Assembly: GCA_026392465.1 (NCBI GenBank)
Contig: JAPLCA010000001.1
Coordinates: 1 to 64,000, forward strand
DNA length: 64,000 nt
Direction: 5' to 3'
Source of the DNA: Propionibacteriales bacterium
GTDB taxonomy: Bacteria > Actinomycetota > Actinomycetes > Propionibacteriales > Nocardioidaceae
The position numbers and the translations under genes are program-made. Of this stretch, positions 1-23,414 are shown in pieces. Under the pieces are notes generated by a model. That model ran no database searches and was not told the DNA's origin. It was given only the letters and a program-made list of their open reading frames with translations. Each line of letters begins with the position of its first letter. The stretch's first letter is position 1.

Positions 1-991
1 CAGCCACGACGCGCTCGTCGCGGAGTACCAGAAGCAACGCACCGCAAACGCGACCTCCACGAAGGACCTGCTGCTCGGAATCTGGCGGTTTGGGGTCTTC
101 AACGAGAAAAGCTGCACGAAGGTGCTCTCCGGAGCTTGTGCCTTTGAGAGCGCCTCGATCGTCTTTAAACCCCTGAAGTTCCTGAAGCCGCTCAAGTACG
201 TCGACGATGCGGCAGAAGCAGGTTCCGACGCCAAGAAGGCCGCGAACACCGCGGTCAAGGTCTGCGCCAACAGCTTCACCGGCGACACGCTCGTGCTCAT
301 GGCCGACGGGCGCAAGAAGGCGATCAGGGACGTCAAGCTCGGCGACGAGGTGATGGCCACCGATCCGGAGACCGGTGAGACCGGCCCACGGAAGGTCATC
401 GACCTCATCCGCCACGGCGGTTTGCACACGATGGTTGCGGTCCGGTTGTCGGACGGGTCGACGATCGACGCGACCGACGGGCACCCGTTCTGGGTCGAGT
501 CCCGCGGGGTGTGGGTCGACGCCATCGACCTGCAGCCCGGCGACGTCTTGGTCACCGCCGGCGGTGATCGCCTCACGGTGGCGAGCCTGGGCATCAGCGA
601 GCAGGACCTGACCGCCTACAACCTCACCGTCGAGGGCCTGCACACCTACTTCGCCGGCGGCGACTCGGTGCTGGTCCACAACGCTGGTTGCGCGAACATC
701 ACCGAGGCAGGGCTTGCGCACTCGTTCGACCGGCACGCTGCGCAATGGTTTGGTGGGCAGCCGACCAAGGCCGGCCAGATGGCTGAGTGGCGGGGGCTGA
801 TCGAACGTACGGCGGGCAGCTCGAAGGTCGTCCCGTGGAGCTCTGGCAGCACGTTGACCGACGCGCACATCGCCCGAATTGACGGCAAGTACTTCGTGGC
901 GCAATTCGACCGCGGGAGCGGTGACCTGGTCACCGCGTTCGTCCCGAAGAACGATCAGCTCAGCGCGATGCTGCGATCATTGGGGCAGTGA
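1..991 (+). CDS. Polymorphic toxin C-terminus: HINT (pretoxin/intein-like) domain plus ~100-aa C-terminal toxin domain; 5' end outside window
   Basis: Frame 2 is open from the window edge. Hint hallmarks: CANSFTGDTLVLMADGRKKAIRDVKLGDEV..., DGHPFWVE, YNLTVEGLHTYFAGGDSVLVHN|AGC. Unique C-terminal domain (HSFDRHAAQWFGG...DAHIARIDGKYFVAQFDRGSGDLVTAFVP) follows the HN cleavage motif. The listed GTG at 122 is probably internal. Confidence 0.9.
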   Translation, partial: SHDALVAEYQKQRTANATSTKDLLLGIWRFGVFNEKSCTKVLSGACAFESASIVFKPLKFLKPLKYVDDAAEAGSDAKKAANTAVKVCANSFTGDTLVLMADGRKKAIRDVKLGDEVMATDPETGETGPRKVIDLIRHGGLHTMVAVRLSDGSTIDATDGHPFWVESRGVWVDAIDLQPGDVLVTAGGDRLTVASLGISEQDLTAYNLTVEGLHTYFAGGDSVLVHNAGCANITEAGLAHSFDRHAAQWFGGQPTKAGQMAEWRGLIERTAGSSKVVPWSSGSTLTDAHIARIDGKYFVAQFDRGSGDLVTAFVPKNDQLSAMLRSLGQ

Positions 992-1734
992 TGACAGATT
1001 TGTATCCAGACCCGCCCCACCTGTCAGCATTCGTCGCGCCCGCGTTGGATTCCTGGGAGGCGCTCGGACTGGCTTGGGACGTGCTCAACGGCCAGGGCTG
1101 TGCGTTCACTGGCGACGTCCTGGTCGCGCGCGAAGACGAGTGGTTCCGAGACGTGAGCGATGTCGAGCGCGAGGTGATCCGGCCGAGCGGTTCGCCGCAC
1201 GACCTGCTGGCGCGACGCGACGCTCTTCGGATCCAGTTCCGTCACCGGAGCATCGGCACTGTTGCGCTGGGTCTCTCGTCGGCCGGCGAGTTTGGTGAAC
1301 CGCATCCGCTTGAAGTCGCGATCCACGCTGGACCCTTGTCCATGCCTGTCGAGCTCTGGTCCAAGTCCGACCGGCAATCCGCGAAGCGCCTCATGGGTTG
1401 GATGGAGAGGTTGCTGCTCGCCCTGGTCGGGCCGACCAAGGCTCAGTACGGAGCGATCGGGATCGAGGCGACCTTCCCGACGCCGGCCGCGTTGGTGGGG
1501 AGCCAGCGCTCAAGGCTCTGGCCGACGACATGGTTCTGGTCAACTCAACTTGGCTCGCGTGCAGTGGCCGAAGAGGAGCAGTTGTTGTCGGGCCTGAACC
1601 AGAGCGCCCTGTCGCGATCCAATGCGGGCACGATCTTCCGAGCCTGGCGACCGTGGAGCGAACCCCAGGCCGACGAGCCCAGCTTGGAACGAGTCGTCGG
1701 TTTTCTAGGCCGCTTCGTCGAGAGTTCCCGCTAG
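991..1734 (+). CDS. Putative cognate immunity protein
   Basis: ATG at 991 overlaps the TGA stop (989-991) of the toxin gene; ~247 aa; position directly downstream of a Hint toxin domain. Confidence 0.65.
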   Translation: MTDLYPDPPHLSAFVAPALDSWEALGLAWDVLNGQGCAFTGDVLVAREDEWFRDVSDVEREVIRPSGSPHDLLARRDALRIQFRHRSIGTVALGLSSAGEFGEPHPLEVAIHAGPLSMPVELWSKSDRQSAKRLMGWMERLLLALVGPTKAQYGAIGIEATFPTPAALVGSQRSRLWPTTWFWSTQLGSRAVAEEEQLLSGLNQSALSRSNAGTIFRAWRPWSEPQADEPSLERVVGFLGRFVESSR

Positions 1735-1779
1735 CCGTCCGATCAGCTGGTCTGGGCGAGTCGCCGTGCTTGGTGGCGG

Positions 1780-1990
1780 TGGCCACGCGTGACTCCGGTG
1801 GGCTCAAGCACACGGCGGTGGATCATCAGAACACGCCGTTGGTGACGTCGACGACGGCGAGCGTGGAGAAGCGTCGTTACTCCCCGTTCGGGGAGGCGTT
1901 GACCGATGCCTCAGCGTTGTGGCGCTCGGCTTCGGCGTTTACGAAGCAAGCGACGTCGGAGGCGACGCGGCCGACGACGCCATGGATGGG
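1780..1990 (+). pseudogene. Rhs/YD-repeat core 3' remnant (toxin gene fragment)
   Basis: Frame-3 translation LKHTAVDHQNTPLVTSTTASVEKRRYSPFGEALTDA resembles the Rhs core end motif (DHLGT..LVTD..G.V..RRYDPFGE) but has no full-length gene around it. Confidence 0.6.
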
Positions 1991-1998
1991 ACACTCCG

Positions 1999-2394
1999 AT
2001 GATGCGGCCTCGAATTCACGGCATGATGCTCCTCAATATCTGGGTCTCCTCCATCGGCGCCGGAGCATTCGTGATGATCTGGGTCGTCGGTGGCATCACC
2101 ATGGTCGCCGAGACCGCGCCCGGCTCTCCCCTGGAATGGTGCATTTACGGCCTGGTGCTGATCATGGTGGTCGACGCCGTCGGTGTCACGATTTACAAGA
2201 TCTTGACAGGCGCTGATCGTCGACGCGCGATCAGCTCCGCCTGGGACGCCTACGATCACAAGGACTATGCGGCCGTGATGGAAACTCTGGAGCCTCACAA
2301 AAGAGATCTGAGCTACGTCGACTACATCCGGTACCTGCGCGCAAAGGACCTTCTTCGTAGGTCGAATGCTCGTCAGTCTGACAGCGAAGGGTGA
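1999..2394 (+). CDS. Small membrane protein (about 2 TM), possible orphan immunity protein
   Basis: MMRPRIHGMMLLNIWVSSIGAGAFVMIWVVGGITMV...CIYGLVLIMVVDAVGVTIY then a soluble tail; in the toxin/immunity array. Confidence 0.55.
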   Translation: MMRPRIHGMMLLNIWVSSIGAGAFVMIWVVGGITMVAETAPGSPLEWCIYGLVLIMVVDAVGVTIYKILTGADRRRAISSAWDAYDHKDYAAVMETLEPHKRDLSYVDYIRYLRAKDLLRRSNARQSDSEG

Positions 2395-2468
2395 GTAGAT
2401 GTCGATTCTAGATCTTTCGGTCACATCGATGCGCCTACCCAAGGCGCGGCTCCACAACGGTGCGACCA

Positions 2469-2551
2469 GCTCTGGCCCTGTCGGACTTCACTCGCGGCCT
2501 TCCTCCGAAACTGAACATGCGGAGGACGGTGAACGGCCATGATGGCCAGGC
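2469..2551 (+). repeat. Segmental repeat copy 1 (about 80 bp), matching 6050-6129
   Basis: GAACATGCGGAGGACGGTGAACGGCCATGATGGCCAGG here versus GAACATGCGGAGAGCGGTGAACGGCCATGATGGCCAGG downstream, with flanking similarity. Confidence 0.7.
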
Positions 2552-2575
2552 TCCGTATTGACTGAAAGCGAACGG

Positions 2576-3076
2576 ATGGAACCGATGAGCGTCTGGACCA
2601 CGGCTGCTGCCGATTGGGCCCGTCGATCACTGGCTCGCGGATCCAGCTTCGAGCAGGTCGATATCGACGAGCTGACTGACGAGCAGTTGCCCGCTGCGGC
2701 AGTTCCGGTGGCGGTGCACTGTGCCCGGGCTGTGCGCTCGCTGCTCGATGAGGCGCACTCTGCGCTCGAGGCAGCTGTCTGCATCCCCTTGGCGCCACTT
2801 GAAGATGAACGGATTCCGACGGCCGTTCCCGACCTCGGGGAGCTCCTCGACCGCGCGTGGCGGTACGGGCCCGGTCATGAGGTCCCGGGCCTCTACCTGC
2901 TCGAACGTGTGCGTTGGTTGCGTGAGGAAGAGAGCGTGGAGTACCGGAGGGTGTTCGAAGATCCACGAGCGCCGGAGGGTTTCGACGTGGCTTACTCGGC
3001 GTGGCGTTCGAGACATGATGAAGAGCGCGGGTGGCCGTTCAACCGATGCATTTGGTTGCGATGTCGACCGAACTGA
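2576..3076 (+). CDS. Hypothetical protein, immunity-array member
   Basis: Open frame MEPMSVWTTAAADWARRSLARGSSFEQVDIDELTDEQL...; start uncertain (2558-2585). Confidence 0.5.
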   Translation: MEPMSVWTTAAADWARRSLARGSSFEQVDIDELTDEQLPAAAVPVAVHCARAVRSLLDEAHSALEAAVCIPLAPLEDERIPTAVPDLGELLDRAWRYGPGHEVPGLYLLERVRWLREEESVEYRRVFEDPRAPEGFDVAYSAWRSRHDEERGWPFNRCIWLRCRPN

Positions 3077-3597
3077 CTGAACGGCCGCGATGCATCTAGG
3101 CAAGCGCATGGCGTTCGGCCGACACGTCACGGCGCATTGGATCATTCGTAGGCTCGGCGGCGCGTCACACTACTTGCGGCGACTATCTCGGCGCTGGTCT
3201 TTCCAAGTCCGGCATGAGCATTCGAGATGCCGGACAGAGCTGGGGTCACCCCAGTTGCGTCGACAGCTCGGGCAGGCGAGATGAAGCTCGTCCAGTCTCC
3301 CTGGACGGCCCAGCCGGCGGACGCTGAGGCACAGGACTCGCGGATCCAGGCGACCACGAGGCGGCGCAGCGATCACGCACTTCGGCAAAAGTACGCTGGG
3401 ATCATGGAGCCGGTGTGGGTCGACATGGACGGTCTATCGATGCTGCGCGGAGTGGATCCCGCGATCTCCTCGCGGATCACGACCGCGTGGGGCCGCTGCG
3501 GACGTGGCCTGCGGCGGAAGGCGACGGCTCGCGTCACCACGCAGGTCTCTTACCGGATCGACGAGATGCATGGCTCGTCGTTCGCGTGGGGGCCCCG

Positions 3598-3954
3598 ATG
3601 AAAGAGCAACTTCGAACTGCCTTCTTCGAGGATCTTGCCCGTGCGATGGACTACTGGGTCGACACCGTCGCCAAGACGGTCGAGGACCCCGACGCTAGTG
3701 GCACGTGGATGGAAGAGCGCGGACCGTTCGAGCGGCTCCACGAGGTGCTCGGAGACCGCGCGGAGTACCTGCGGCCGGTTCTCGCGGAAGGGATGCGCGG
3801 ACTGCTGAACAGTGTGCTTACGACCATCGACGGAGGCACTGCCAGCGCCGAGGTCGGCATCATCGAACTCACCAACGCTGAGGGCGAGGTCTTGGGAGTG
3901 GGACTCCACGAGTTGTTCGTGGATCACCTCTTCCACACGGGTCGGCTGGAGTAG
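3598..3954 (+). CDS. Hypothetical acidic protein, immunity-array member
   Basis: MKEQLRTAFFEDLARAMDYWVDTVAKTVEDPDASGTWMEERGPFERLHEVLGD...; coherent 118-aa ORF. Confidence 0.5.
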   Translation: MKEQLRTAFFEDLARAMDYWVDTVAKTVEDPDASGTWMEERGPFERLHEVLGDRAEYLRPVLAEGMRGLLNSVLTTIDGGTASAEVGIIELTNAEGEVLGVGLHELFVDHLFHTGRLE

Positions 3955-4366
3955 GGCAGCTGGTCCGAGCGAGCGCGTGTGCGGGAGCCAGCCCGCCGGA
4001 AGCTGATCGAGCTGAAGCGTCGACCGACGTCACTGTCTACAGCTCGACCATCAAAGGCAGTCACGACTCGCAAGACGCTGGCGCCCACCTGCTCGTCCAC
4101 GATTGCTCTGTTCGTTCCGGGCGGGCGACGCTACCGGCCCGAACGTAGGGCTGCGGACTTCGATCTCAATGAGTCGGCACAGCTGATCCGAGGCCACGCC
4201 GATGCTCATGACCTCAGGCGGTCATCTCTCCCTGAGACTTGGACCGTGCTGGATGGACAAACAGGAACAAGGCTGTCGGGGACAGACCTCCTACCGACTC
4301 GACGACAAAGGGAGTTCGGGTCATCGTCAACCCGCCATTGCGTAGCACTACCTACCACCCGGGACG

Positions 4367-4783
4367 GTGACCGTGACCGAGCTTGAGGACATCCACGTCC
4401 AGCTGCCGTATGGCCGTACCTTCACGATGCAGATGTTGGTTGACGGTTGGCAGCGACACATCGCGCGCCTCGCGGAGGAGATGCGAGGTCCTGCACGTGA
4501 GGAGACGTGGGGAGCGCACGACTACTTCGCTGCGCTCAGTCTCCGGGATCACATCGAGACTGGCCGCGATGGCCTCGGCCGCAGACACGATCACCTCGTC
4601 GCGGCCAGCGTGGCAGCAACGGACGAGCTGCTGCGCGCGATCACCGAAGAGGATCGTCGTGGCGTGGTGATCCTTTACGGCGAGCCGGAGTCCATTCTGT
4701 CCTCGAGGTGGTGGTGGCATCGCTTGCCGATGGGCGGACTTGTGCGTGAGGAGTTGGACTCGTGGTCTGCGAACGAAGGGTGA
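4367..4783 (+). CDS. Hypothetical protein, immunity-array member
   Basis: MTVTELEDIHVQLPYGRTFTMQMLVDGWQRHIARLAEEM...; GTG start 4367. Confidence 0.5.
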   Translation: MTVTELEDIHVQLPYGRTFTMQMLVDGWQRHIARLAEEMRGPAREETWGAHDYFAALSLRDHIETGRDGLGRRHDHLVAASVAATDELLRAITEEDRRGVVILYGEPESILSSRWWWHRLPMGGLVREELDSWSANEG

Positions 4784-4841
4784 CCCGCGCCGAGGTCGAC
4801 GCTTCGCTCGAGGCTTTGTACTCAGTGGTGCGAAGTTCGAG

Positions 4842-5215
4842 AGGTGCGCCCCCGCCTGCGAGGTCAAGGGAACGGGAGACCAGGTTCGGCTGCAGATCCG
4901 TAGGATGAGGAAGACAGAAGATCAGCCACCTGACCTCAGTGTTTCGTTGAGTCCGACCAGCGATGTTCACGATCCGAGGACGCGCGAATGATGGGGAGCC
5001 TTGCTCATGGAGGTTGAGCCGCAGGAGCTGGCCGTCGTGGTGCGATACAGGCGTTACGACGGTGCTACACCTGCTCAGTGCGTCGACCTGATGAGGTGGT
5101 ACGCCGACCCCGCCGAGGCGGACGCTGAGGCCGCGCGACTGAACGGGGTCCGGCGAGACAGTGTCGAGTACTTCGTGGAGGTCCTGCGGAATCGACCCCT
5201 CAGTGATCAGGCTCT
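4842..5215 (+). repeat. Tandem duplication unit, copy 1 (two ORF segments)
   Basis: Aligns with 5680-6050 at an offset of ~837-838 bp: CEVKGTGDQVRLQIRRMRKTEDQPPDL... and AVVVRYRRYDGATPAQCVDLMRWYADPAEADAEAARLNGVR. Confidence 0.8.
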
Positions 5216-5270
5216 TCACCCGGTCGTCGGTCTCGAACGGGCCGGGTGGCACGGTACGGTCTCGCGATGA
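5007..5270 (+). CDS. Small hypothetical protein, duplicated family (copy 1)
   Basis: MEVEPQELAVVVRYRRYDGATPAQCVDLMRWYADPAEADAEAARLNGVRRDSVEYFVEVLRNR; paralogue at 5845. Confidence 0.65.
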   Translation: MEVEPQELAVVVRYRRYDGATPAQCVDLMRWYADPAEADAEAARLNGVRRDSVEYFVEVLRNRPLSDQALHPVVGLERAGWHGTVSR

Positions 5271-5617
5271 CGGACCTCCACCCTCGTACTCTCGCGATGC
5301 TCGTGCGAAGTGTTGCTCTGCTGGCGATGCCAGCCGGCGCCCAGATCGCCTGGCTCGAGTCTCTGGGTCTGGGCGCTCCTCTCTACGCCGATGAGCTCTC
5401 CCTCGAGCTCGAGAACGGAGTGCTTTTGCTGCCGCAATTCGAACGAGCCGGCTGGGTGACGGCCGAAGCTCGCCGGGCTGCCGAGGCACTGGATGCTCTG
5501 CTCGGAGAGCGGAGCGGTCCGGTCCATGAGGACTTCTGGCACCTCGACTCCGTGCGGGACTCCCCGGAATGGGCTCGTGTGCGGGAGCTTGCCCTCCAAG
5601 CACTGATCAAGCTCTAG
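5267..5617 (+). CDS. Hypothetical protein, immunity-array member
   Basis: MTDLHPRTLAMLVRSVALLAMPAGAQIAWLESLGLGAPLYADELSLELE...; ATGA overlap with the preceding ORF. Confidence 0.55.
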   Translation: MTDLHPRTLAMLVRSVALLAMPAGAQIAWLESLGLGAPLYADELSLELENGVLLLPQFERAGWVTAEARRAAEALDALLGERSGPVHEDFWHLDSVRDSPEWARVRELALQALIKL

Positions 5618-5679
5618 CCTCGTGCCGCCGTGGTCGTGGCACCTGCGCATGCCGTGGAGCGAATCTCGAGAGGCGCAGC

Positions 5680-6050
5680 GGCCCGCCCCCACATATGAGG
5701 TCAGAGGTACCGGAGGCCAGTTCCGGATGCAGATCCACAGGATGACGAAGAGCGAAGATCTGCCAACGGACCTCCAGGTCTTGTTCGGTCCGATCAGCGA
5801 TGAGCGGAATTCGCCGGAGGGCGAGTTGATGGGAAAGATCGTTCATGACACATGAAGCGCAGCTGTTGGCCGTCGTGGTGCGCAACTCGCACTACGACGG
5901 CGCCACTCCCGCCCAGTGCGTCGACCTGATGAGGTGGTACGCCGACCCCTTGGAGGCTGACGCCGAGGCCGCGCGATTGAACCAGGTCCGGGTAGACGGG
6001 GTCGAGTACTTCGTGAAGATCTTGCAGAACCGGTTGCCCAAGCGGCCGGC
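5680..6050 (+). repeat. Tandem duplication unit, copy 2
   Basis: TYEVRGTGGQFRMQIHRMTKSEDLPTDLQVLFGPISDERN and AVVVRNSHYDGATPAQCVDLMRWYADPLEADAEAARLNQVR, paralogous to 4842-5215. Confidence 0.8.
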
Positions 6051-6123
6051 TTCGGGCCCGGTCGGAGCCGACTCGCGACTCTCCTCCGGAGAAGAACATG
6101 CGGAGAGCGGTGAACGGCCATGA
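5845..6123 (+). CDS. Small hypothetical protein, duplicated family (copy 2)
   Basis: MTHEAQLLAVVVRNSHYDGATPAQCVDLMRWYADPLEADAEAARLNQVRVDGVEYFVKILQNR; C-terminus runs into the 6050-6129 repeat. Confidence 0.65.
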   Translation: MTHEAQLLAVVVRNSHYDGATPAQCVDLMRWYADPLEADAEAARLNQVRVDGVEYFVKILQNRLPKRPASGPVGADSRLSSGEEHAESGERP

Positions 6124-6129
6124 TGGCCA
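6050..6129 (+). repeat. Segmental repeat copy 2 (about 80 bp), matching 2469-2551
   Basis: See the 2469-2551 feature. Confidence 0.7.
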
Positions 6130-6353
6130 GGTTCCACAGCGACGGTGTCGAACTGGACCTGTCGAAGGACGAGTACATCTTCGTGTACTTGCTGCTGACG
6201 CATGCGCTGTACGGGGTCGCGATGGAGGATCACGACTTCCGCAACATCCTGGGCATGTTCCGAGAGGATGCGGAGCGGTTCCTGGACAGCATCAGCGCAG
6301 CCGAGGACGAGGCGCGAGCCAGGGGAGATCACTGGAACCCGCCTCGCGCGTGA
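6120..6353 (+). CDS. Small hypothetical protein
   Basis: MMARFHSDGVELDLSKDEYIFVYLLLTHALYGVAMEDHDFRNILGMFREDAERFLDSISAAEDEARARG; overlaps upstream stop (ATGA). Confidence 0.6.
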   Translation: MMARFHSDGVELDLSKDEYIFVYLLLTHALYGVAMEDHDFRNILGMFREDAERFLDSISAAEDEARARGDHWNPPRA

Positions 6354-6704
6354 GACTCCGAGACGCTGCGCCGGTTGCAGCGCAGACTTCATCGGTCAGT
6401 TCGCCGAGGCGCGAGTGCCACCATGAACACCATGACCTTCATCCTCGGCGACCGTGTCTACGACGTGCGTCTGTCGGGTGATGACGCAGCCCGCGCGGCC
6501 GTGTTGACCGTGACGGTGGACGGTCGGTGAGTGGTCCGCGACCATTGCAGGTTGACGTCGAGCCGGCGTCGGATCACGGATAGGGGCCCTCGAGGACCGG
6601 GCGCTTCCCATCAGCATGAGGCTGACGAGAATTGAGCTGGATGCGCGTCGCGCTCGCCTCGCATCCGGGTGCCTCTGTGCCGAAGATCGGGCGTCCACGG
6701 TGTG

Positions 6705-7160
6705 ATGGCGTTTCGATCGAAGGTGCGCGTCAGTCCTGGGAAGATCGAGTCCATGATCAAGGCATCTTTTGCCATCGAGAGTCGCGAGCTGACGCTCGAC
6801 GAGATCAGCGCCGCGATGGCGCGGGAGCCCGATCGAGGCTTCGAACGCGGATCCGTCGGCCCCTCCTCCACATGGACGAGGGACTGGACCTCGTGGTCGA
6901 TGGAGTTGCAGCTGCCACGTGACATTCACGCAGGCACCGAGGGACTGACGACGGCGATTGCGTCGTTGGGCACGCCGATGGCGGAACGAGCAGCGACGCT
7001 TGCCGCGAAAGGGTGCGAGGTCGTGCTCAGCGTCCACCAGGAGCTCGCCGACCGACCCGAGGACACCGGCTTGAATCTGGACTCCGCAGCCATCAGGTGG
7101 CTCGCGGCAGCGGGTGCGGTGCTGTCAGTCGATCAGTACGTCGCCACGGAGCCGACATGA
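6705..7160 (+). CDS. DUF4279-like protein
   Basis: IKASFAIESRELTLDEISAAMAREPDRGFERGS...WTSWSMELQLPRDIHAGTEGLTTAIASLGTPMAERAATLAAKGCEVVLSV: DUF4279 pattern; family common next to polymorphic toxins. Confidence 0.65.
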   Translation: MAFRSKVRVSPGKIESMIKASFAIESRELTLDEISAAMAREPDRGFERGSVGPSSTWTRDWTSWSMELQLPRDIHAGTEGLTTAIASLGTPMAERAATLAAKGCEVVLSVHQELADRPEDTGLNLDSAAIRWLAAAGAVLSVDQYVATEPT

Positions 7161-7227
7161 GCTGGCCGTTCGACTCAAGGTACAAGAGTCGCGAAGCAGC
7201 GATCAGCAGGAGCGGAACGGAGCGCTG

Positions 7228-7779
7228 ATGATCACGCACGGCCGGTTCGTCTCCACCTTCGATGCCATGACGGCGGACCTGCCGACCGGTCCGCCCGACG
7301 TCACCTGTGCTGCCGAGGGCTCCGGGTCGCGGTCGAGGGTGGTCATGGTGCAACCGCGGGGCGGACAGGTGTGGACCGGGACGTTCGCGGCGCCCGACCC
7401 CGGTCGCCCCGCTCTGACTGCGCTGCTCGGCACTCCGGACCCCGCGGGTCTGTGCATCGTGGAGCGGGGAACCGCGTTCCTCGGCGACGTGCTCGCGCCA
7501 GCGAGCTTCGGGGTGATCCCGACCGCAGGGCCTGTCGTGAGCGCGGAGGCTCTGCCGCGCGAGCAGGTGCTGCTCCTCCTGAGCCCGTGGGCGATCACGG
7601 CCATCGGCGAGCGCGGCGTGCTCTGGACGACGCCACGGCTCGCTGTCGACGGCATCCGCCTGGACGAGGCCGACGCCGGTTGGGTCAGAGGAGTGGCGGA
7701 TCCGGACGATGACGAGCCACGCGACGTCGCGGTCGAGCTAGCGACAGGCCTGGTGAGAGGTGGACGCGTGATCGGTTGA
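7228..7779 (+). CDS. Hypothetical protein, immunity-array member
   Basis: MITHGRFVSTFDAMTADLPTGPPDVTCAAEGSGSRSRVVMVQPRGGQVWTG... Confidence 0.55.
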   Translation: MITHGRFVSTFDAMTADLPTGPPDVTCAAEGSGSRSRVVMVQPRGGQVWTGTFAAPDPGRPALTALLGTPDPAGLCIVERGTAFLGDVLAPASFGVIPTAGPVVSAEALPREQVLLLLSPWAITAIGERGVLWTTPRLAVDGIRLDEADAGWVRGVADPDDDEPRDVAVELATGLVRGGRVIG

Positions 7780-7856
7780 GTCCGGGTCGTGCTGGCGTGG
7801 TGGACGGGGCTGGGGACAGGATGATCAGGACCCCGAGGCCGGAGAGAAGGAAGAGC

Positions 7857-8195
7857 ATGCAGCTCACGTACGACCGGCTCCGTGCGGACGAGCTGAGGGG
7901 GAGCACGCAGGCGGACTACCTGGTCTCCCTCGACGCTCACCTCCAGATGGTGGAGAACGGCGCGGTGATCTTCGACGAGCCGGCGTTCCCCGTCGTGGAG
8001 CTGGCGAGAAGCCTTGTGTCGTGGCTGCCGCGGGCTGAGAGCGACGACTTTGAGTTCGACTCGATGTCGTTCGAGGAGCGAGGCACCGTCTTCATCCGAC
8101 GCACTGCGTTGGGCTGGACGTTCGGCTCGGTCCTCGAGCCCGACGCCACCAGCAGACCAGTCGAGCTCGCCGACGTCGTCCGATGCTGCCGATGA
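7857..8195 (+). CDS. Hypothetical protein (DUF7878-like / immunity-like)
   Basis: MQLTYDRLRADELRGSTQADYLVSLDAHLQMVENGAVIFDEPAFPVVELARSLVSWL...; family name is tentative. Confidence 0.5.
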   Translation: MQLTYDRLRADELRGSTQADYLVSLDAHLQMVENGAVIFDEPAFPVVELARSLVSWLPRAESDDFEFDSMSFEERGTVFIRRTALGWTFGSVLEPDATSRPVELADVVRCCR

Positions 8196-8794
8196 CCGGC
8201 TTCGAGCTCTTCCCGCAGGACAGCGACGCGTTCGCTGCCCTGGAGGACGATCGCGCATTCGTCGCCCCCGGCGCCCGGACGCTGCCGTACTCACCGTTCG
8301 CCGGTCGGCTCACGAACTTCCGCCTGGGTCAGTTCAGCGCCGTCCTCAGCGGAGACTTCGCCTCTGACCTGTTCGACCTGGTGCAGGCGTTCGGGGACGA
8401 CCAGGTCTCGTGCGTCGTGCGAGATCCCTCGCCGACCTCCTACCGACTGCACTACGGCGGTTTTCCCGCCTTCAGGATCGCCGCAGCCGACCTGGAAGAG
8501 AGGTTCTGGGACGCGCTCAGCCACGAGCCCGACGACGACCCGACCGGCTCGATCTTCGAGTCGGCGAACATCGTCGCGATGTGGGGTAGTTCCCACCGGT
8601 GGGCGGGCTGGGCCGAGCGGTCGTGGGATGTCGGCGTGGTCGCGACGGAGCGACCGTGGGAGCCTCCTGCGTCGAGCGACGTCGCCTGGGTGTCCGCGCA
8701 GGAAGCGCTGGACTGGTTCACCGAGCCCGACTTCAAGATCCCCTTGGCCCCGGCAGACCGTGCGAGGTTCCTCGCCACTTTCGAAGCGTGCTGA
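8192..8794 (+). CDS. Hypothetical protein, last member of the immunity-like array
   Basis: MTGFELFPQDSDAFAALEDDRAFVAPG...; ATGA overlap with the upstream gene. Confidence 0.6.
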   Translation: MTGFELFPQDSDAFAALEDDRAFVAPGARTLPYSPFAGRLTNFRLGQFSAVLSGDFASDLFDLVQAFGDDQVSCVVRDPSPTSYRLHYGGFPAFRIAAADLEERFWDALSHEPDDDPTGSIFESANIVAMWGSSHRWAGWAERSWDVGVVATERPWEPPASSDVAWVSAQEALDWFTEPDFKIPLAPADRARFLATFEAC

Positions 8795-8859: not shown

Positions 8860-9179
8860 TCAGTCGTCGAGCGCGTCCAGCTGCTCGAGCGCCTCGCGGG
8901 CGCGCGCCACGCGGGCGTCGGGCTCGTCGTCCCACCAGCGGGGTCCGCGCTCCCCGAGTCCGTGCTTCGCCAGGCCGACGCGGTGCCGTGCCGCGGCGAC
9001 CGCGTGGTCGTCGCCCGCCTTCTTGGCCACGCGCACGCCGGAGCGGCCCCGCCCCAGGTGCGACGTCAGCCGCTCGACGACGTCGTCGGGCAGGCAGGGG
9101 TCGGTGCGGCGCCAGCGTCGACCCTTGACGACGAGGTAGTGCTCGTCCTCGGCAGGGCCGTCCGACGGGCCGTCGTCGC
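8860..9179 (-). CDS. Conserved hypothetical protein (often annotated biopolymer transporter Tol)
   Basis: EDEHYLVVKGRRWRRTDPCLPDDVVERLTSHLGRGRSGVRVAKKAGDDHAVAAARHRVGLAKHGLGERGPRWWDD; start codon uncertain. Confidence 0.6.
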
Positions 9180-9185
9180 TCAGAG

Positions 9186-9572
9186 TCAGGCCTTGACGGC
9201 CACGACGGGCGCGTCGGCCTCGAGGAGGATGCGCTGCGAGGTGCTGCCGAGCACCAGCTTGCCGACGGGCGAACGGCGGCGCTGGCCGATGACGACGAGC
9301 GACACGTCGTCGCCCTTCGCGTGGTCGAGGATCGAGTCGGCGGCACCGCCGGCGCCGCGGAAGTGCACGACGTCGCCCTCGACGCCGGCCTCCGCCAGCC
9401 GCGCCTGCAGCGCGTCGATCTGCTGCTCCTCGGAGATCGCCTCGGCCGTGTCGGCGCCCGGGGTCGCGACCACCGTGAGCCGCGCGGAGTCGCGCTGGGC
9501 CTGGGCGAGTGCCCACGCGAGCGCGGCCTCACCCTCGGGGGTCGGGACGTAGCCGGCGACGATCGTGGTCAT
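9186..9572 (-). CDS. Universal stress protein
   Basis: MTTIVAGYVPTPEGEAALAWALAQA...VVIGQRRRSPVGKLVLGSTSQRILLEADAPVVAVKA. Confidence 0.9.
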   Translation of the reverse strand: MTTIVAGYVPTPEGEAALAWALAQAQRDSARLTVVATPGADTAEAISEEQQIDALQARLAEAGVEGDVVHFRGAGGAADSILDHAKGDDVSLVVIGQRRRSPVGKLVLGSTSQRILLEADAPVVAVKA

Positions 9573-9606
9573 GCTTCCTCCTGGTCGGTGACTCCCACGG
9601 TAGTCC

Positions 9607-10044
9607 TCAGCGGCGGCCACGCGCGGCGAGCGCGTCGACGCTCCAGCGGCCGGGTCCGACGAGGGCGAGCAGGAACGCCACGGCCGCGAGGACGAGCACG
9701 AACTCCGACCCGCCGTCGGAGACCAGGAACGCGTCGCGGTGGGCGTACCAGGCCGCGCCGAGCATGCCGAGGCCGAGCAGCGGCGCGACGACCGGCGTCA
9801 GGGCGCCGAGCACCAGCAGGGCGCCGCCGACCACCTCGAGCGTGGCCAGCGCCACCGCGGACACGTCGGCGAGCGGCACGCCCATGGCGGCGAAGCCGTC
9901 CTGCGTCCCGCCGATGCCGCCGGACCACTTCTGCCAGCCGTGGACGACGAACGTGACGCCGACGACGACCCGTCCGATGAGGAGGCCGAGGTCCTGCGCG
10001 GTGGCGGGTCGGCGATGGTCGATCGTGCGAGCGATGGTGGACAT
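9607..10044 (-). CDS. DoxX family membrane protein
   Basis: LGLLIGRVVVGVTFVVHGWQKWSGGIGGTQDGFAAMGVP... Confidence 0.88.
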   Translation of the reverse strand: MSTIARTIDHRRPATAQDLGLLIGRVVVGVTFVVHGWQKWSGGIGGTQDGFAAMGVPLADVSAVALATLEVVGGALLVLGALTPVVAPLLGLGMLGAAWYAHRDAFLVSDGGSEFVLVLAAVAFLLALVGPGRWSVDALAARGRR

Positions 10045-16656: not shown

Positions 16657-17637
16657 GTGAAGGAAACACCAGGACGTCCCGAGGAACCCCGTCAGCCCGC
16701 GGGACAGTGGAGCGACGTCGCCGACGCCGGTACTGACCTGACATGGGGTGTGGGAGCCGTCTCCTCGCGACTTGGTGTCGCCGCGTCGACCCTGCGCACC
16801 TGGGAACGGCGGTACGGCATCGGGCCGAGCCACCGCACGCACGGCGGCCACCGGCGCTACACCGAGCGCGACATCACCCGTGTCGAGCTGGTCCGTCGCA
16901 TGGTGGCGAGAGGGGTCTCCGCCCAGGACGCCGCCCGGGTGGCCCGTCACCTCGACCGCGACGATCTCGCCGCAGCGCTGCGCGGCGAGACCAGCCACAC
17001 GGCGCCCGTCCAGACCGACGACCTCCTCGACTCGTTCCTCGCCGCAGCCACGGCCAGCGACGAGGCACGGCTGCAGCAGATCGTCACCGGCGTGCTGGAG
17101 TCGTCGTCGGTGCTCGAGGCGTGGCGGGACGTGCTGTCGCCGGCGCTCGGCCGTCTCACGCAGGAGGTGTCGCGCGGGAACCTCGACCGCGACGCGCTCT
17201 CCCTGGCCCTGCGGACGGTGCTCGGGGCGCTGCACGTGGTGCGCGGCCCCAGTGCGCCCCCCGCCCAGGGCGGCCTCAAGCCGCAGGTGCTGCTCGCCAC
17301 CTTCACCGAGGAGTCCCAGGCCCTCCCGTTCGTCGCGTGGGCCGCAGCGCTCGCCCAGGCCGACGTGGTGCTGCGCGTCATCGGACCCGACATCGGCCCC
17401 CGTGAGGTGCTCGACCTCGCCTCCCGGCTGTCGCCGTCGGTGGTCGTGCTGTGGGACGCGCCCGGCGACTCGGCCGGGATCGTGCGCCACCACGTCGAGA
17501 ACGGCGGTCGCAGCGCGTTCATCCGTGCCAGCCCCGGGTGGCCGGACGAGGTGCGCATCCGCTTCGGCACCGAGACGCCGGAGGTCGCCGCCGACGTCGG
17601 CACCGCCGTGCGCAAGGTCCTCGACCGCGTGCGCTGA
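16657..17637 (+). CDS. MerR family regulator with C-terminal cobalamin-binding-like region
   Basis: WGVGAVSSRLGVAASTLRTWERRYGIGPSHRTHGGHRRYTERDI HTH; C-terminal architecture CarH/LitR-like. Confidence 0.8.
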   Translation: MKETPGRPEEPRQPAGQWSDVADAGTDLTWGVGAVSSRLGVAASTLRTWERRYGIGPSHRTHGGHRRYTERDITRVELVRRMVARGVSAQDAARVARHLDRDDLAAALRGETSHTAPVQTDDLLDSFLAAATASDEARLQQIVTGVLESSSVLEAWRDVLSPALGRLTQEVSRGNLDRDALSLALRTVLGALHVVRGPSAPPAQGGLKPQVLLATFTEESQALPFVAWAAALAQADVVLRVIGPDIGPREVLDLASRLSPSVVVLWDAPGDSAGIVRHHVENGGRSAFIRASPGWPDEVRIRFGTETPEVAADVGTAVRKVLDRVR

Positions 17638-17673
17638 CCGCGAGCGCGTCCGGGTGAGGTCTAGCCTTTCCCC

Positions 17674-18477
17674 ATGACCACGTCTGCCGTCCTCACCCGC
17701 ATCGACGGACCTGTCGCGTACGTGAGCCTCAACCGGCCCGAGAAGCTCAACGGCGTCGACTTCGAGGTCCTCCAGGGCCTGATCGACGCCGCCGCCGAGG
17801 TGCGCGGTCGTCGTGACGTCCGCGCCGTCGTGCTGCAGGGCGAGGGGGACTCGTTCTGCGCCGGCCTCGACTTCGCCTCGGTGCAGCCCCAGCGGGCGAA
17901 GGTCGCGCGGTTCTTCCTGACCCCGCCCTGGCGCGCCACCAACGGCTTCCAGCAGGCGCTGTGGGCCTGGCGCGAGCTGCCTGTGCCGGTGATCGCCGTG
18001 ACGCACGGTCATGTCTTCGGTGCCGGCATCCAGTTGGCCCTCGCCGCCGACTTCCGGTTCACGACGCCCGACGCGCAGTGGTCGCTGCTGGAGGCCAAGT
18101 GGGGTCTCGTGCCCGACATGAGCGGCACCGTCCCCCTCGTCGAGCTGGTCGGCGCCGACGTCGCCAAGCGGCTCGCGATGACCGGCGAGACCGTCTCCGG
18201 CGAGGAGGCCGCCGAGATCGGGCTGGCGTCCGGCGTCGCCGACGACCCCCTGAAGCCGGCGCTGGAGCTGGTCGACGCGATCGTCGCCCGCTCGCCCGAC
18301 TCCGTCGCGGCCAGCAAGAAGCTGCTCAACCAGGTGCGGCTCGGCGGGCTGCGCTCGGCGTTCCGCCGCGAGCGTCTCTACCAGCTCGCCATGTTCCGCT
18401 CCCCGAACACCGCGATCGCCCGCAAGGCGGGTCTGAAGCGCGAGCAGCCCCAGTTCGGCCCCCGCACGTTCGGCTGA
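17674..18477 (+). CDS. Enoyl-CoA hydratase/crotonase family protein
   Basis: VAYVSLNRPEKLNGVDFEV...AVVLQGEGDSFCAGLDF...HGHVFGAGIQLALAADFRF. Confidence 0.93.
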   Translation: MTTSAVLTRIDGPVAYVSLNRPEKLNGVDFEVLQGLIDAAAEVRGRRDVRAVVLQGEGDSFCAGLDFASVQPQRAKVARFFLTPPWRATNGFQQALWAWRELPVPVIAVTHGHVFGAGIQLALAADFRFTTPDAQWSLLEAKWGLVPDMSGTVPLVELVGADVAKRLAMTGETVSGEEAAEIGLASGVADDPLKPALELVDAIVARSPDSVAASKKLLNQVRLGGLRSAFRRERLYQLAMFRSPNTAIARKAGLKREQPQFGPRTFG

Positions 18478-18596
18478 ACCTGAAGGCGCGCAGCGCCTGA
18501 ACGGTGAAGCCAGGTCGAGTCGTGCACCGGCGGAGCCGGTCCCGCTGTATCGAGACCTCGGCAGCGTCCAGACCCCGGCACGCCCGGGCTGGTGAC

Positions 18597-18704
18597 GCTG
18601 GGCCGTTGCCGGGTGGTCTCGCTCCGTCGCGGCTACGCCCCCTTGCGACGGCTCCACTGTCCGACCGGGCTCCTTCGTCGCCGGTCGGACTACTCGACCA
18701 GCGG
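18597..18704 (+). repeat. Dispersed hairpin repeat, copy A
   Basis: GCTGGGCCGTTGCCGGGTGGTCTCG...stem GTCCGACCGG/CCGGTCGGAC...CTACTCGACCAGCGG. Confidence 0.75.
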
Positions 18705-18758
18705 ATGGGCGTCGCACCGCACGGGCTCGGGGCGGGGTGCGTTGTTAGGCTGGCGCGC

Positions 18759-19519
18759 GTGACGGACGAGAAGCGCAAGAAGGTCGCCGACCAGTACGAC
18801 CGCGGCTACGACTACACGGCCTACTGGGACAACCGCGACTACGAGCACGCCGCCGAGGAGGCGGCGATCCGTCGTCTGCTGGACGGCCGTCACTTCGGCC
18901 GGGCGGCCGACGTCGGCGGCGGCTTCGGCCGGCTCTGCCTGCTGCTGCGCGAGTACGCCGACCACGTCACGCTCGCCGAGCCGAGCCGCACGCAGCTGGA
19001 GGCGGCGGAGCGCGTGCTCGCCGGCACCGACATCGCGCAGGTGCAGATGCAGGCCGACGACCTGCAGTTCGACGACGCGTCGCTCGACCTGCTGACGATG
19101 GTGCGCGTCATGCACCACATCCCCGAGCCGACCACCGAGTTCTCCGAGATCGCGCGCGTGCTCAAGCCCGGCGCGACCGCCCTCATCGAGGTCGCGAACT
19201 ACGGCCACTTCAAGAACCGTCGACGGTTCAAGAAGGAGGGCAAGGCGCTGCCGAAGGAGCCCGTCAGCATCCGCACGGCCACGGCCGAGGAGCCCGACGC
19301 CATCGCGTTCGTCAACCACAACGTCGACACCGTCGTCGACCAGCTCGCGTCCGCGGGGCTGCACCTGGAGCGGAAGCTGTCGGTCTCGAACCTGCGCAGC
19401 GAGAAGCTGAAGAAGGCGCTCCCGACCGGTCTGCTCGTCTCGGTCGAGAAGGCCCTGCAGGAGCGGCTCGCGTCGCGCGATTCGGCCCGAGCATCTTCCT
19501 CGAGCTGCGCCGCCGCTGA
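18759..19519 (+). CDS. Class I SAM-dependent methyltransferase; apparent -1 nt frameshift near 19479
   Basis: VTDEKRKKVADQYDRGYDYTAYWDNRDYEHAAEEAAIRRLL...ADVGGGFGRL...; C-terminal FGPSIFLELRRR* is in another frame from 19481. Confidence 0.8.
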
Positions 19520-22824: not shown

Positions 22825-22886
22825 GACTCCAGGGCAGCCGCCGCGGGTGAACATCGGGCGACATCGCGTCGCCGATCACATGACGG

Positions 22887-23414
22887 TCAGAGGGCGCCGA
22901 GGCGCTGCAGCACGTCGCGCACGTGCTGGAGCGCGTTCTTCTCCGCCAGGCCCGTGGTGTCGTCGAAGTAGAGGCCGTCACCGATGAGCTGGATGGTCCG
23001 GGCCAGCGACTCGTCGCCGAGGTGCTCGCGCAGCACCACGAACCAGCCCTCGCGCAGGTCGGCCAGCGCGTTCGAGGCGCGGGTGTCGTTCTCCTGCGCG
23101 ATGCGTCCCGCGGCGATCAGGGCACGGTCGAAGTCGGAGCCGGAGTCGACCGACGTCTCGAGGTAGTAGCCCACGGGCCCCTCGGGCGCCTCGCTCATCG
23201 CCGCGGCGTCGCGTGCGCCCTGCTCCCGCAGCCGGGTGAGCATGCCGTCGACCAGCTCGTCCTTGCTGTGGAAGTGGTACAGCAGGCCGCCCTTGGACAC
23301 CTCGGCCTGCGCGGCGACGGCGTCGAGCGTGGCCGCGCGGCTGCCCTGGGTGACGAGGAGCGTCTCGAACGCGTCGAGCACACGGTCGCGGGTGGAGCGC
23401 TCGGCCGGCGGCAT
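22887..23414 (-). CDS. TetR/AcrR family transcriptional regulator
   Basis: RDRVLDAFETLLVTQGSRAATLDAVAAQAEVSKGGLLYHFHSKDELVDGML. Confidence 0.92.
   Translation of the reverse strand: MPPAERSTRDRVLDAFETLLVTQGSRAATLDAVAAQAEVSKGGLLYHFHSKDELVDGMLTRLREQGARDAAAMSEAPEGPVGYYLETSVDSGSDFDRALIAAGRIAQENDTRASNALADLREGWFVVLREHLGDESLARTIQLIGDGLYFDDTTGLAEKNALQHVRDVLQRLGAL

What the first reader, a model, noticed from the sequence alone, without database searches (positions are those of the whole stretch)
1..8794. Compact polymorphic-toxin locus with an array of ~10 diverse small orphan immunity-like genes
A Hint-toxin gene end is followed on the same strand by a ~7.8 kb run of short, mutually dissimilar ORFs, several with ATGA overlaps. 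One is DUF4279-like, one a small membrane protein. A buried Rhs-core fragment lies in the run. Established knowledge: polymorphic toxin loci accumulate arrays of orphan immunity genes and displaced toxin cassettes. Most members here match no family I recognise, so this is the best candidate in the window for uncharacterised toxin/immunity pairs.
Basis: partly seen in the sequence, partly recalled or inferred. Interest (0 to 1): 0.7.

Follow-up and report, generated by a model that had tools for sequence, protein, structure and literature searches.

The report
Orphan immunity-gene array behind toxin gene
A bacterium, probably an actinobacterium, carries one large secreted antibacterial toxin gene followed by its own antidote gene and about a dozen leftover antidote genes whose toxins have decayed; this is a known kind of locus, but it exposes several toxin/antidote families absent from the curated family libraries searched.

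Summary
Confirmed and largely explained. Window 1-991 is the 3' end of an Rhs/Hint polymorphic toxin; the contig starts inside it. Its cognate immunity gene and 13 small same-strand ORFs follow, up to a conserved flank at about 8.86 kb. (1) The site is hypervariable: between the same flanks one relative has almost nothing, one has an IS and fragments, and one has the same cassettes shuffled behind a toxin with a different tip. (2) Homologues of 10 of the 13 orphan ORFs (nine families) lie directly 3' of toxin tips in other genomes. (3) Broken remnants of matching tips survive at 4114-4367, 4858-4991 and 5701-5855. (4) Between two species ten orphan ORFs are under purifying selection (dN/dS 0.11-0.46), while two tip remnants drift (0.8-1.0). 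The live pair (BECR-fold RNase-like tip plus 247-aa immunity protein) recurs as adjacent genes in all 15 loci found by a collection scan, though only 10 downstream ORFs match by single-sequence search. Nine tip families match no Pfam or NCBIfam model; the DUF4279 partner is Ntox33-like. It is a new member of a known kind. Two ORFs stay unpaired, two genes are truncated, and neutralisation is untested.

The parts
2..991 (+). 3' end of an Rhs/Hint polymorphic toxin gene, 5' part off the contig. Pretoxin HINT about 290-685; C-terminal toxin domain (tip) 686-988
   Evidence: PT-HINT E 2e-22. The N-terminal part of a toxin 98% identical to that of G027 runs off the end of own-genome contig C13 next to fhaA
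991..1734 (+). Cognate immunity gene imm1 (possible GTG start at 988), 247 aa
   Evidence: Directly 3' of homologous tips in G309 and G319. All 15 scanned tip loci have a 220-275-aa ORF there, 10 matching imm1 by phmmer
1775..1922 (+). Displaced Rhs-core fragment
   Evidence: 90% DNA identity to the Rhs core of the G027 toxin
2023..2394 (+). Small membrane protein, immunity-like, no toxin partner found
   Evidence: Frameshifted paralogue on own-genome C26. dN/dS 0.15 against it
2562..2588 (+). Possible scar of the last codons of a toxin tip (LKANGWNR*), overlapping the next start
   Evidence: G027 has LMANGWNL* at the same place and the G133 tip ends LIANGWNL* before the homologous gene. Not significant by E-value alone; the argument is positional
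2585..3076 (+). Orphan immunity gene
   Evidence: Homologue directly 3' of a 2180-aa Hint toxin in G133. dN/dS 0.19, p 3e-8
3598..3954 (+). Small ORF, immunity-like by position only
   Evidence: Best codon score in its frame. Only fragments in G027 and G007; dN/dS unresolved
4114..4367 (+). Frameshifted remnant of the toxin tip cognate to 4367-4783
   Evidence: tblastn E 3e-9 and 4e-5 in two frames to the G068 tip; 0 of 1100 shuffled tips reach 1e-4
4367..4783 (+). Orphan immunity gene
   Evidence: Homologues directly 3' of one tip family in G068, G156 and G257, and next to a broken tip in G574. dN/dS 0.46, p 0.015
4858..4991 (+). 5'-truncated toxin-tip remnant A1
   Evidence: E 4e-6 to the G367 tip. 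dN/dS 0.82, not different from 1
5007..5270 (+). Orphan immunity gene B1
   Evidence: Homologue directly 3' of a Hint toxin in G367. dN/dS 0.26
5267..5617 (+). Orphan immunity gene
   Evidence: Homologues directly 3' of one tip family in G348 and G312. dN/dS 0.17, p 4e-7
5701..5855 (+). 5'-truncated toxin-tip remnant A2
   Evidence: E 2e-7 to the G367 tip. dN/dS 1.03
5845..6123 (+). Orphan immunity gene B2, paralogue of B1
   Evidence: Same family as B1. dN/dS 0.19, p 1e-5
6120..6353 (+). Orphan immunity gene, 77 aa
   Evidence: Homologue is the ATGA-overlapping gene directly behind the live toxin in congener G027. dN/dS 0.13 against the orphan copy in G027
6423..6530 (+). Truncated immunity-like gene (35 of 112 aa)
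   Evidence: 112 aa in G027. Homologue in an array behind an Rhs toxin in G735, away from a toxin in G613
6753..7160 (+). DUF4279 orphan immunity gene
   Evidence: Pfam E 5.8e-6. Homologues directly 3' of Ntox33-like tips in G679 and G614 and of a similar tip in G499. dN/dS 0.19
7228..7779 (+). Orphan immunity gene
   Evidence: Homologues directly 3' of one tip family in G012, G348, G336 and G320. dN/dS 0.11, p 1e-12
7857..8195 (+). DUF7878 orphan immunity gene, 3'-truncated by a 131-bp deletion relative to G027
   Evidence: Pfam E 1.5e-16. Homologue directly 3' of a Hint toxin in G303, similar tip end in G187. dN/dS 0.29
8192..8794 (+). Orphan immunity gene, 200 aa
   Evidence: Homologues directly 3' of one tip family in G084, G742 and G867. 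dN/dS 0.31
8860..10044 (-). Conserved right flank (small protein, universal-stress-type protein, DoxX-like protein)
   Evidence: 79-95% DNA identity and same order in G007, G027 and G019

Best explanation
This is the variable 3' half of a secreted Rhs/Hint polymorphic toxin locus at a hypervariable site next to fhaA. New tip-plus-immunity cassettes have repeatedly recombined into the 3' end of one toxin gene. Each arrival pushed older immunity genes downstream; the old toxin tips decayed while the immunity genes were kept. The present tip is most likely an antibacterial BECR-type RNase neutralised by the adjacent 247-aa protein. The downstream genes most likely protect against toxins still carried by neighbours. 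Shown: the anatomy, the variability of the site between species, adjacency of nine orphan families to toxin tips elsewhere, the tip remnants, and purifying selection on ten orphan genes. Inferred: the order of events, RNase activity, neutralisation and benefit in competition.
For: Hypervariable site: about 1 kb between flanks in G019, IS plus fragments in G007, shuffled cassettes behind a different tip in G027. Half of the window tip plus imm1 is a displaced cassette in G027 at 96.5%. Nine orphan families lie directly 3' of toxin tips, several in 2-4 genomes each. Tip plus downstream ORF in 15/15 collection loci in Actinomycetota, Myxococcota and Chloroflexota. Tip remnants upstream of 4367, B1 and B2. 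dN/dS 0.11-0.46 for orphan ORFs against 0.8-1.0 for two tip remnants. BECR-like model of the tip and a T6SS-immunity-like fold for imm1. Precedent for the displacement model in Vibrio, PMC5361080.
Against: No binding or neutralisation data. 2023-2394 and 3598-3954 have no toxin partner. Two orphan genes are truncated, so part of the array is debris. Some homologues lie away from toxins (DUF4279 in G217 and G188; imm1 in G356, G378, G352 and G366; others). Foldseek E-values for the tip are only 0.01-0.05. dN/dS rests mainly on one species pair; imm1 is too similar there to test (0.65, p 0.29), and the remnants tested have only 35-37 codons.
Confidence: 0.9

Rival explanations
1. Neutral debris: the array is a graveyard of old cassettes without present function.
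For: Truncated genes at 6423 and 7857, decayed tips, atypical codon use in several ORFs.
Against: Orphan immunity frames stay open with dN/dS 0.11-0.46, while tip remnants in the same two genomes show 0.8-1.0. Selection could, however, have acted in donor lineages before transfer.
Confidence: 0.08
2. Cassette reservoir: the orphan cassettes are kept as a store from which the toxin can switch its tip by recombination.
For: In G027 the window's tip end and imm1 lie downstream as a cassette at 96.5% identity, and the 6120-type gene has the reverse position.
Against: The tips found in the window's array are truncated or frameshifted and evolve neutrally, so they could not be reused intact.
Confidence: 0.1
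3. A generic genomic island of unrelated small genes at a hotspot, with the toxin as one cargo among many.
For: Low GC, site hypervariability, IS in G007, three ORFs without a firm toxin link.
Against: Ten of the 13 orphan ORFs have homologues directly behind toxin tips elsewhere.
Confidence: 0.04

Closest known systems
Regular polymorphic toxin loci with downstream toxin cassettes (Zhang et al. 2012, PMC3482391)
   Same: Constant toxin body with HINT processing domain, exchangeable 3' tip, immunity gene directly after it, string of immunity genes and displaced cassettes behind
   Different: The displaced tips found here are all broken, so the array is mostly immunity genes; most families are not in the libraries searched
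Heterogeneous polyimmunity loci (Zhang et al. 2012, PMC3482391)
   Same: Many structurally different immunity genes in tandem on one strand
   Different: Here toxin remnants interrupt the row and a live toxin heads it; the definition excludes interrupting cassettes
Orphan immunity arrays of Vibrio cholerae T6SS clusters (Kirchberger et al. 2017, PMC5361080)
   Same: One live effector-immunity pair followed by older immunity genes and effector 3' fragments, explained by successive displacement
   Different: Sec-type Rhs/Hint toxin and no T6SS seen at the locus; heterogeneous families here, in a different phylum
Rhs-Ntox33 / DUF4279 pair in Salmonella T6SS (PMC13304343)
   Same: DUF4279 gene directly behind an Ntox33-like tip (in relatives of the window gene)
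   Different: In the window the DUF4279 gene is an orphan
Colicin E5 / colicin D / CdiA-CT RNases (BECR fold)
   Same: Predicted fold of the live tip
   Different: No sequence similarity detected; activity and target unknown

Membership tests
Polymorphic toxin locus | Conserved toxin body with exchangeable C-terminal toxin domain | tested here: met
   Own-genome and G027 toxins are 98% identical over the N-terminal 1105 aa, and the two loci end in different tips; the own-genome gene is split over two contigs that were not joined
Polymorphic toxin locus | Pretoxin processing domain before the tip | tested here: met
   PT-HINT E 2e-22
Polymorphic toxin locus | Immunity gene directly 3' of the toxin | tested here: met
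   imm1 overlaps the toxin stop; the arrangement recurs in 15/15 scanned loci and in G309 and G319
Polymorphic toxin locus | Toxin kills or inhibits and immunity protein neutralises | not testable with these tools
   Needs expression assays
Heterogeneous polyimmunity locus (strict) | Tandem, structurally different immunity genes on one strand | tested here: met
   Nine orphan families by context, all + strand
Heterogeneous polyimmunity locus (strict) | Never interrupted by toxin genes or cassettes (PMC3482391) | tested here: not met
   Toxin-tip remnants at 4114-4367, 4858-4991 and 5701-5855
Orphan immunity array by sequential displacement | Orphan immunity genes match those of live pairs elsewhere | tested here: met
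   Ten of 13 ORFs
Orphan immunity array by sequential displacement | Intermediate arrangements in related strains | tested here: inconclusive
   G027 shows a shuffled array with the window's cassette displaced, but only species-level genomes are held
BECR RNase (live tip) | Fold | tested here: met
   AF2 pLDDT 95; Foldseek prob 0.98-0.99 to colicin E5, colicin D and a CdiA-CT, but E only 0.01-0.05 and TM about 0.5
BECR RNase (live tip) | RNase activity | not testable with these tools
   Needs an assay

The most novel reading that the evidence does not exclude
One locus exposes about ten toxin/immunity pairs, nine with tips in neither curated library searched, among them a widespread BECR-fold tip with a PA0821-like inhibitor, and shows directly that selection keeps orphan immunity genes while their toxins decay.
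Probability: 0.6. Interest if true: 0.55.

Novelty: new member of a known kind. Interest (0 to 1): 0.5.

Why it matters
It turns a row of nameless small ORFs into defined, testable toxin/immunity pairings, most of them outside the curated libraries searched. The contrast between selected immunity genes and drifting toxin remnants in one array also offers a simple test of whether orphan immunity genes are a maintained defence or debris.

Tried and rejected
Pfam and NCBIfam on tips and immunity ORFs: nothing beyond HINT/intein-type matches, DUF4279, DUF7878, weak Ntox33 and, on another contig, EndoU. PDB sequence searches: no relative. Codon-bias gene calling missed several of the genes because the array is atypical in composition; comparative dN/dS was used instead. 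The CTD row used a wrong frame offset and is disregarded. A DNA match to the tip in G024 gave no protein match on inspection. No significant tip remnant was found upstream of 6120, 6753, 7228, 7857 or 8192. Supplementary lists of earlier toxin surveys could not be read.

Full report
What is there. The window is the first 64 kb of contig C28 of a 3.69-Mb high-GC genome. Bases 2-991 are the end of a gene with a pretoxin HINT domain and a C-terminal domain of about 100 aa (the tip). Its immunity gene imm1 follows with an overlapping start, then 13 small + strand ORFs up to 8794. GC is lower there than in the flank, and several ORFs start in ATGA-type overlaps.

The missing front. A protein search of the own genome with the first 1105 aa of the G027 toxin hits only contig C13 (98% identity), where the gene runs off the contig end behind a 928-aa protein and fhaA. 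The contig ends were not joined. The Rhs-core fragment at 1775-1922 repeats toxin sequence and may explain the assembly break; that is inference.

A hypervariable site. In G019 the fhaA side and the right flank lie about 1 kb apart. In G007 the gap holds other genes, transposase pieces and fragments of window sequence. In G027 it holds a 2244-aa toxin with a different tip, the 6120-type gene directly behind it, and then window pieces in another order. In G027 the second half of the window's tip plus imm1 is a displaced cassette at 96.5% identity. These are different species; no strains were available.

Pairing by context. A concatenated query of the ORFs hit 18 of 299 family genomes, 30 of 397 order genomes and, with a somewhat different set of ORFs, 19 of 396 class genomes, counting the own genome and congeners. 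Neighbourhoods were read. Directly 3' of toxin tips lie homologues of 2585 (G133), 4367 (G068, G156, G257), the B family (G367), 5267 (G348, G312), 6120 (G027), DUF4279 (G679, G614, G499), 7228 (G012, G348, G336, G320), DUF7878 (G303) and 8192 (G084, G742, G867). Where a family has several cases, the tips look alike by reading; they were not formally clustered. Other homologues of these families lie away from recognisable toxins. 6423 is in an array behind an Rhs toxin in G735. 2023-2394 and 3598-3954 have no partner.

The live pair. A scan of the species-genome collection with the tip gave 15 loci in Actinomycetota, Myxococcota and Chloroflexota. All 15 have an ORF of 220-275 aa directly 3' of the tip, and 10 of these match imm1 by single-sequence phmmer. 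The tip model (pLDDT 95) is closest to colicin E5, colicin D and a CdiA-CT. The imm1 model (pLDDT 86.5) is closest to the T6SS protein PA0821; that PA0821 is an immunity protein is recalled knowledge, not tested here.

Decay and selection. Remnants of matching tips lie just upstream of 4367 (E 3e-9, two frames), B1 (4e-6) and B2 (2e-7); none of 1100 shuffled tips reached 1e-4. Between the window and G027, dN/dS is 0.11-0.46 for ten orphan ORFs and 0.22 for the short 6423 fragment, each below 1 at p 0.022 or less without correction for multiple tests. Two tip remnants show 0.8-1.0 over only 35-37 codons. imm1 is too similar to test, and 3598 is unresolved.

Placement. The plan matches known polymorphic toxin loci and the displacement model from Vibrio. 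It fails one defining feature of a strict polyimmunity locus, because toxin remnants interrupt it. DUF4279 as likely immunity to Ntox33 is already reported. Nine tip families match no Pfam or NCBIfam model; the DUF4279 partner is weakly Ntox33-like. Absent from these libraries does not mean never noticed.

Noticed in passing
own-genome contig C17:27731-28435 (L044 7732-8436): A second Hint toxin gene with an EndoU nuclease tip (Pfam E 4e-11).
   Followed up: partly
own-genome contig C26:52835-53232 (L043 8836-9233): Frameshifted paralogue of the membrane protein 2023-2394, with no toxin seen nearby.
   Followed up: no
G027 locus (L038/L039 reverse complement) 16803-18817 and 22836-23357: Further small genes in the relative's array, including a barstar (E 6e-19) and hydrophobic proteins.
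   Followed up: partly
L120, L121, L123, L124: imm1 homologues without a toxin at one conserved position in four large-genome relatives.
   Followed up: no
window 991-1734 and 2585-8794 against G027: dS is 0.035 for imm1, about 0.18-0.54 for orphans and 0.07 for a flank gene, suggesting that parts of the locus have different transfer histories.
   Followed up: partly
window 2471-2554 and 6052-6135: 84-bp repeat (81%) carrying the start of the 6120 gene; at 2471 it is a start-only fragment fused upstream of 2585, a recombination joint also seen in G027.
   Followed up: partly
window 9607-10044: DoxX-like protein with a below-cutoff match to HvfX, a copper-RiPP maturation family (E 4e-10).
   Followed up: no
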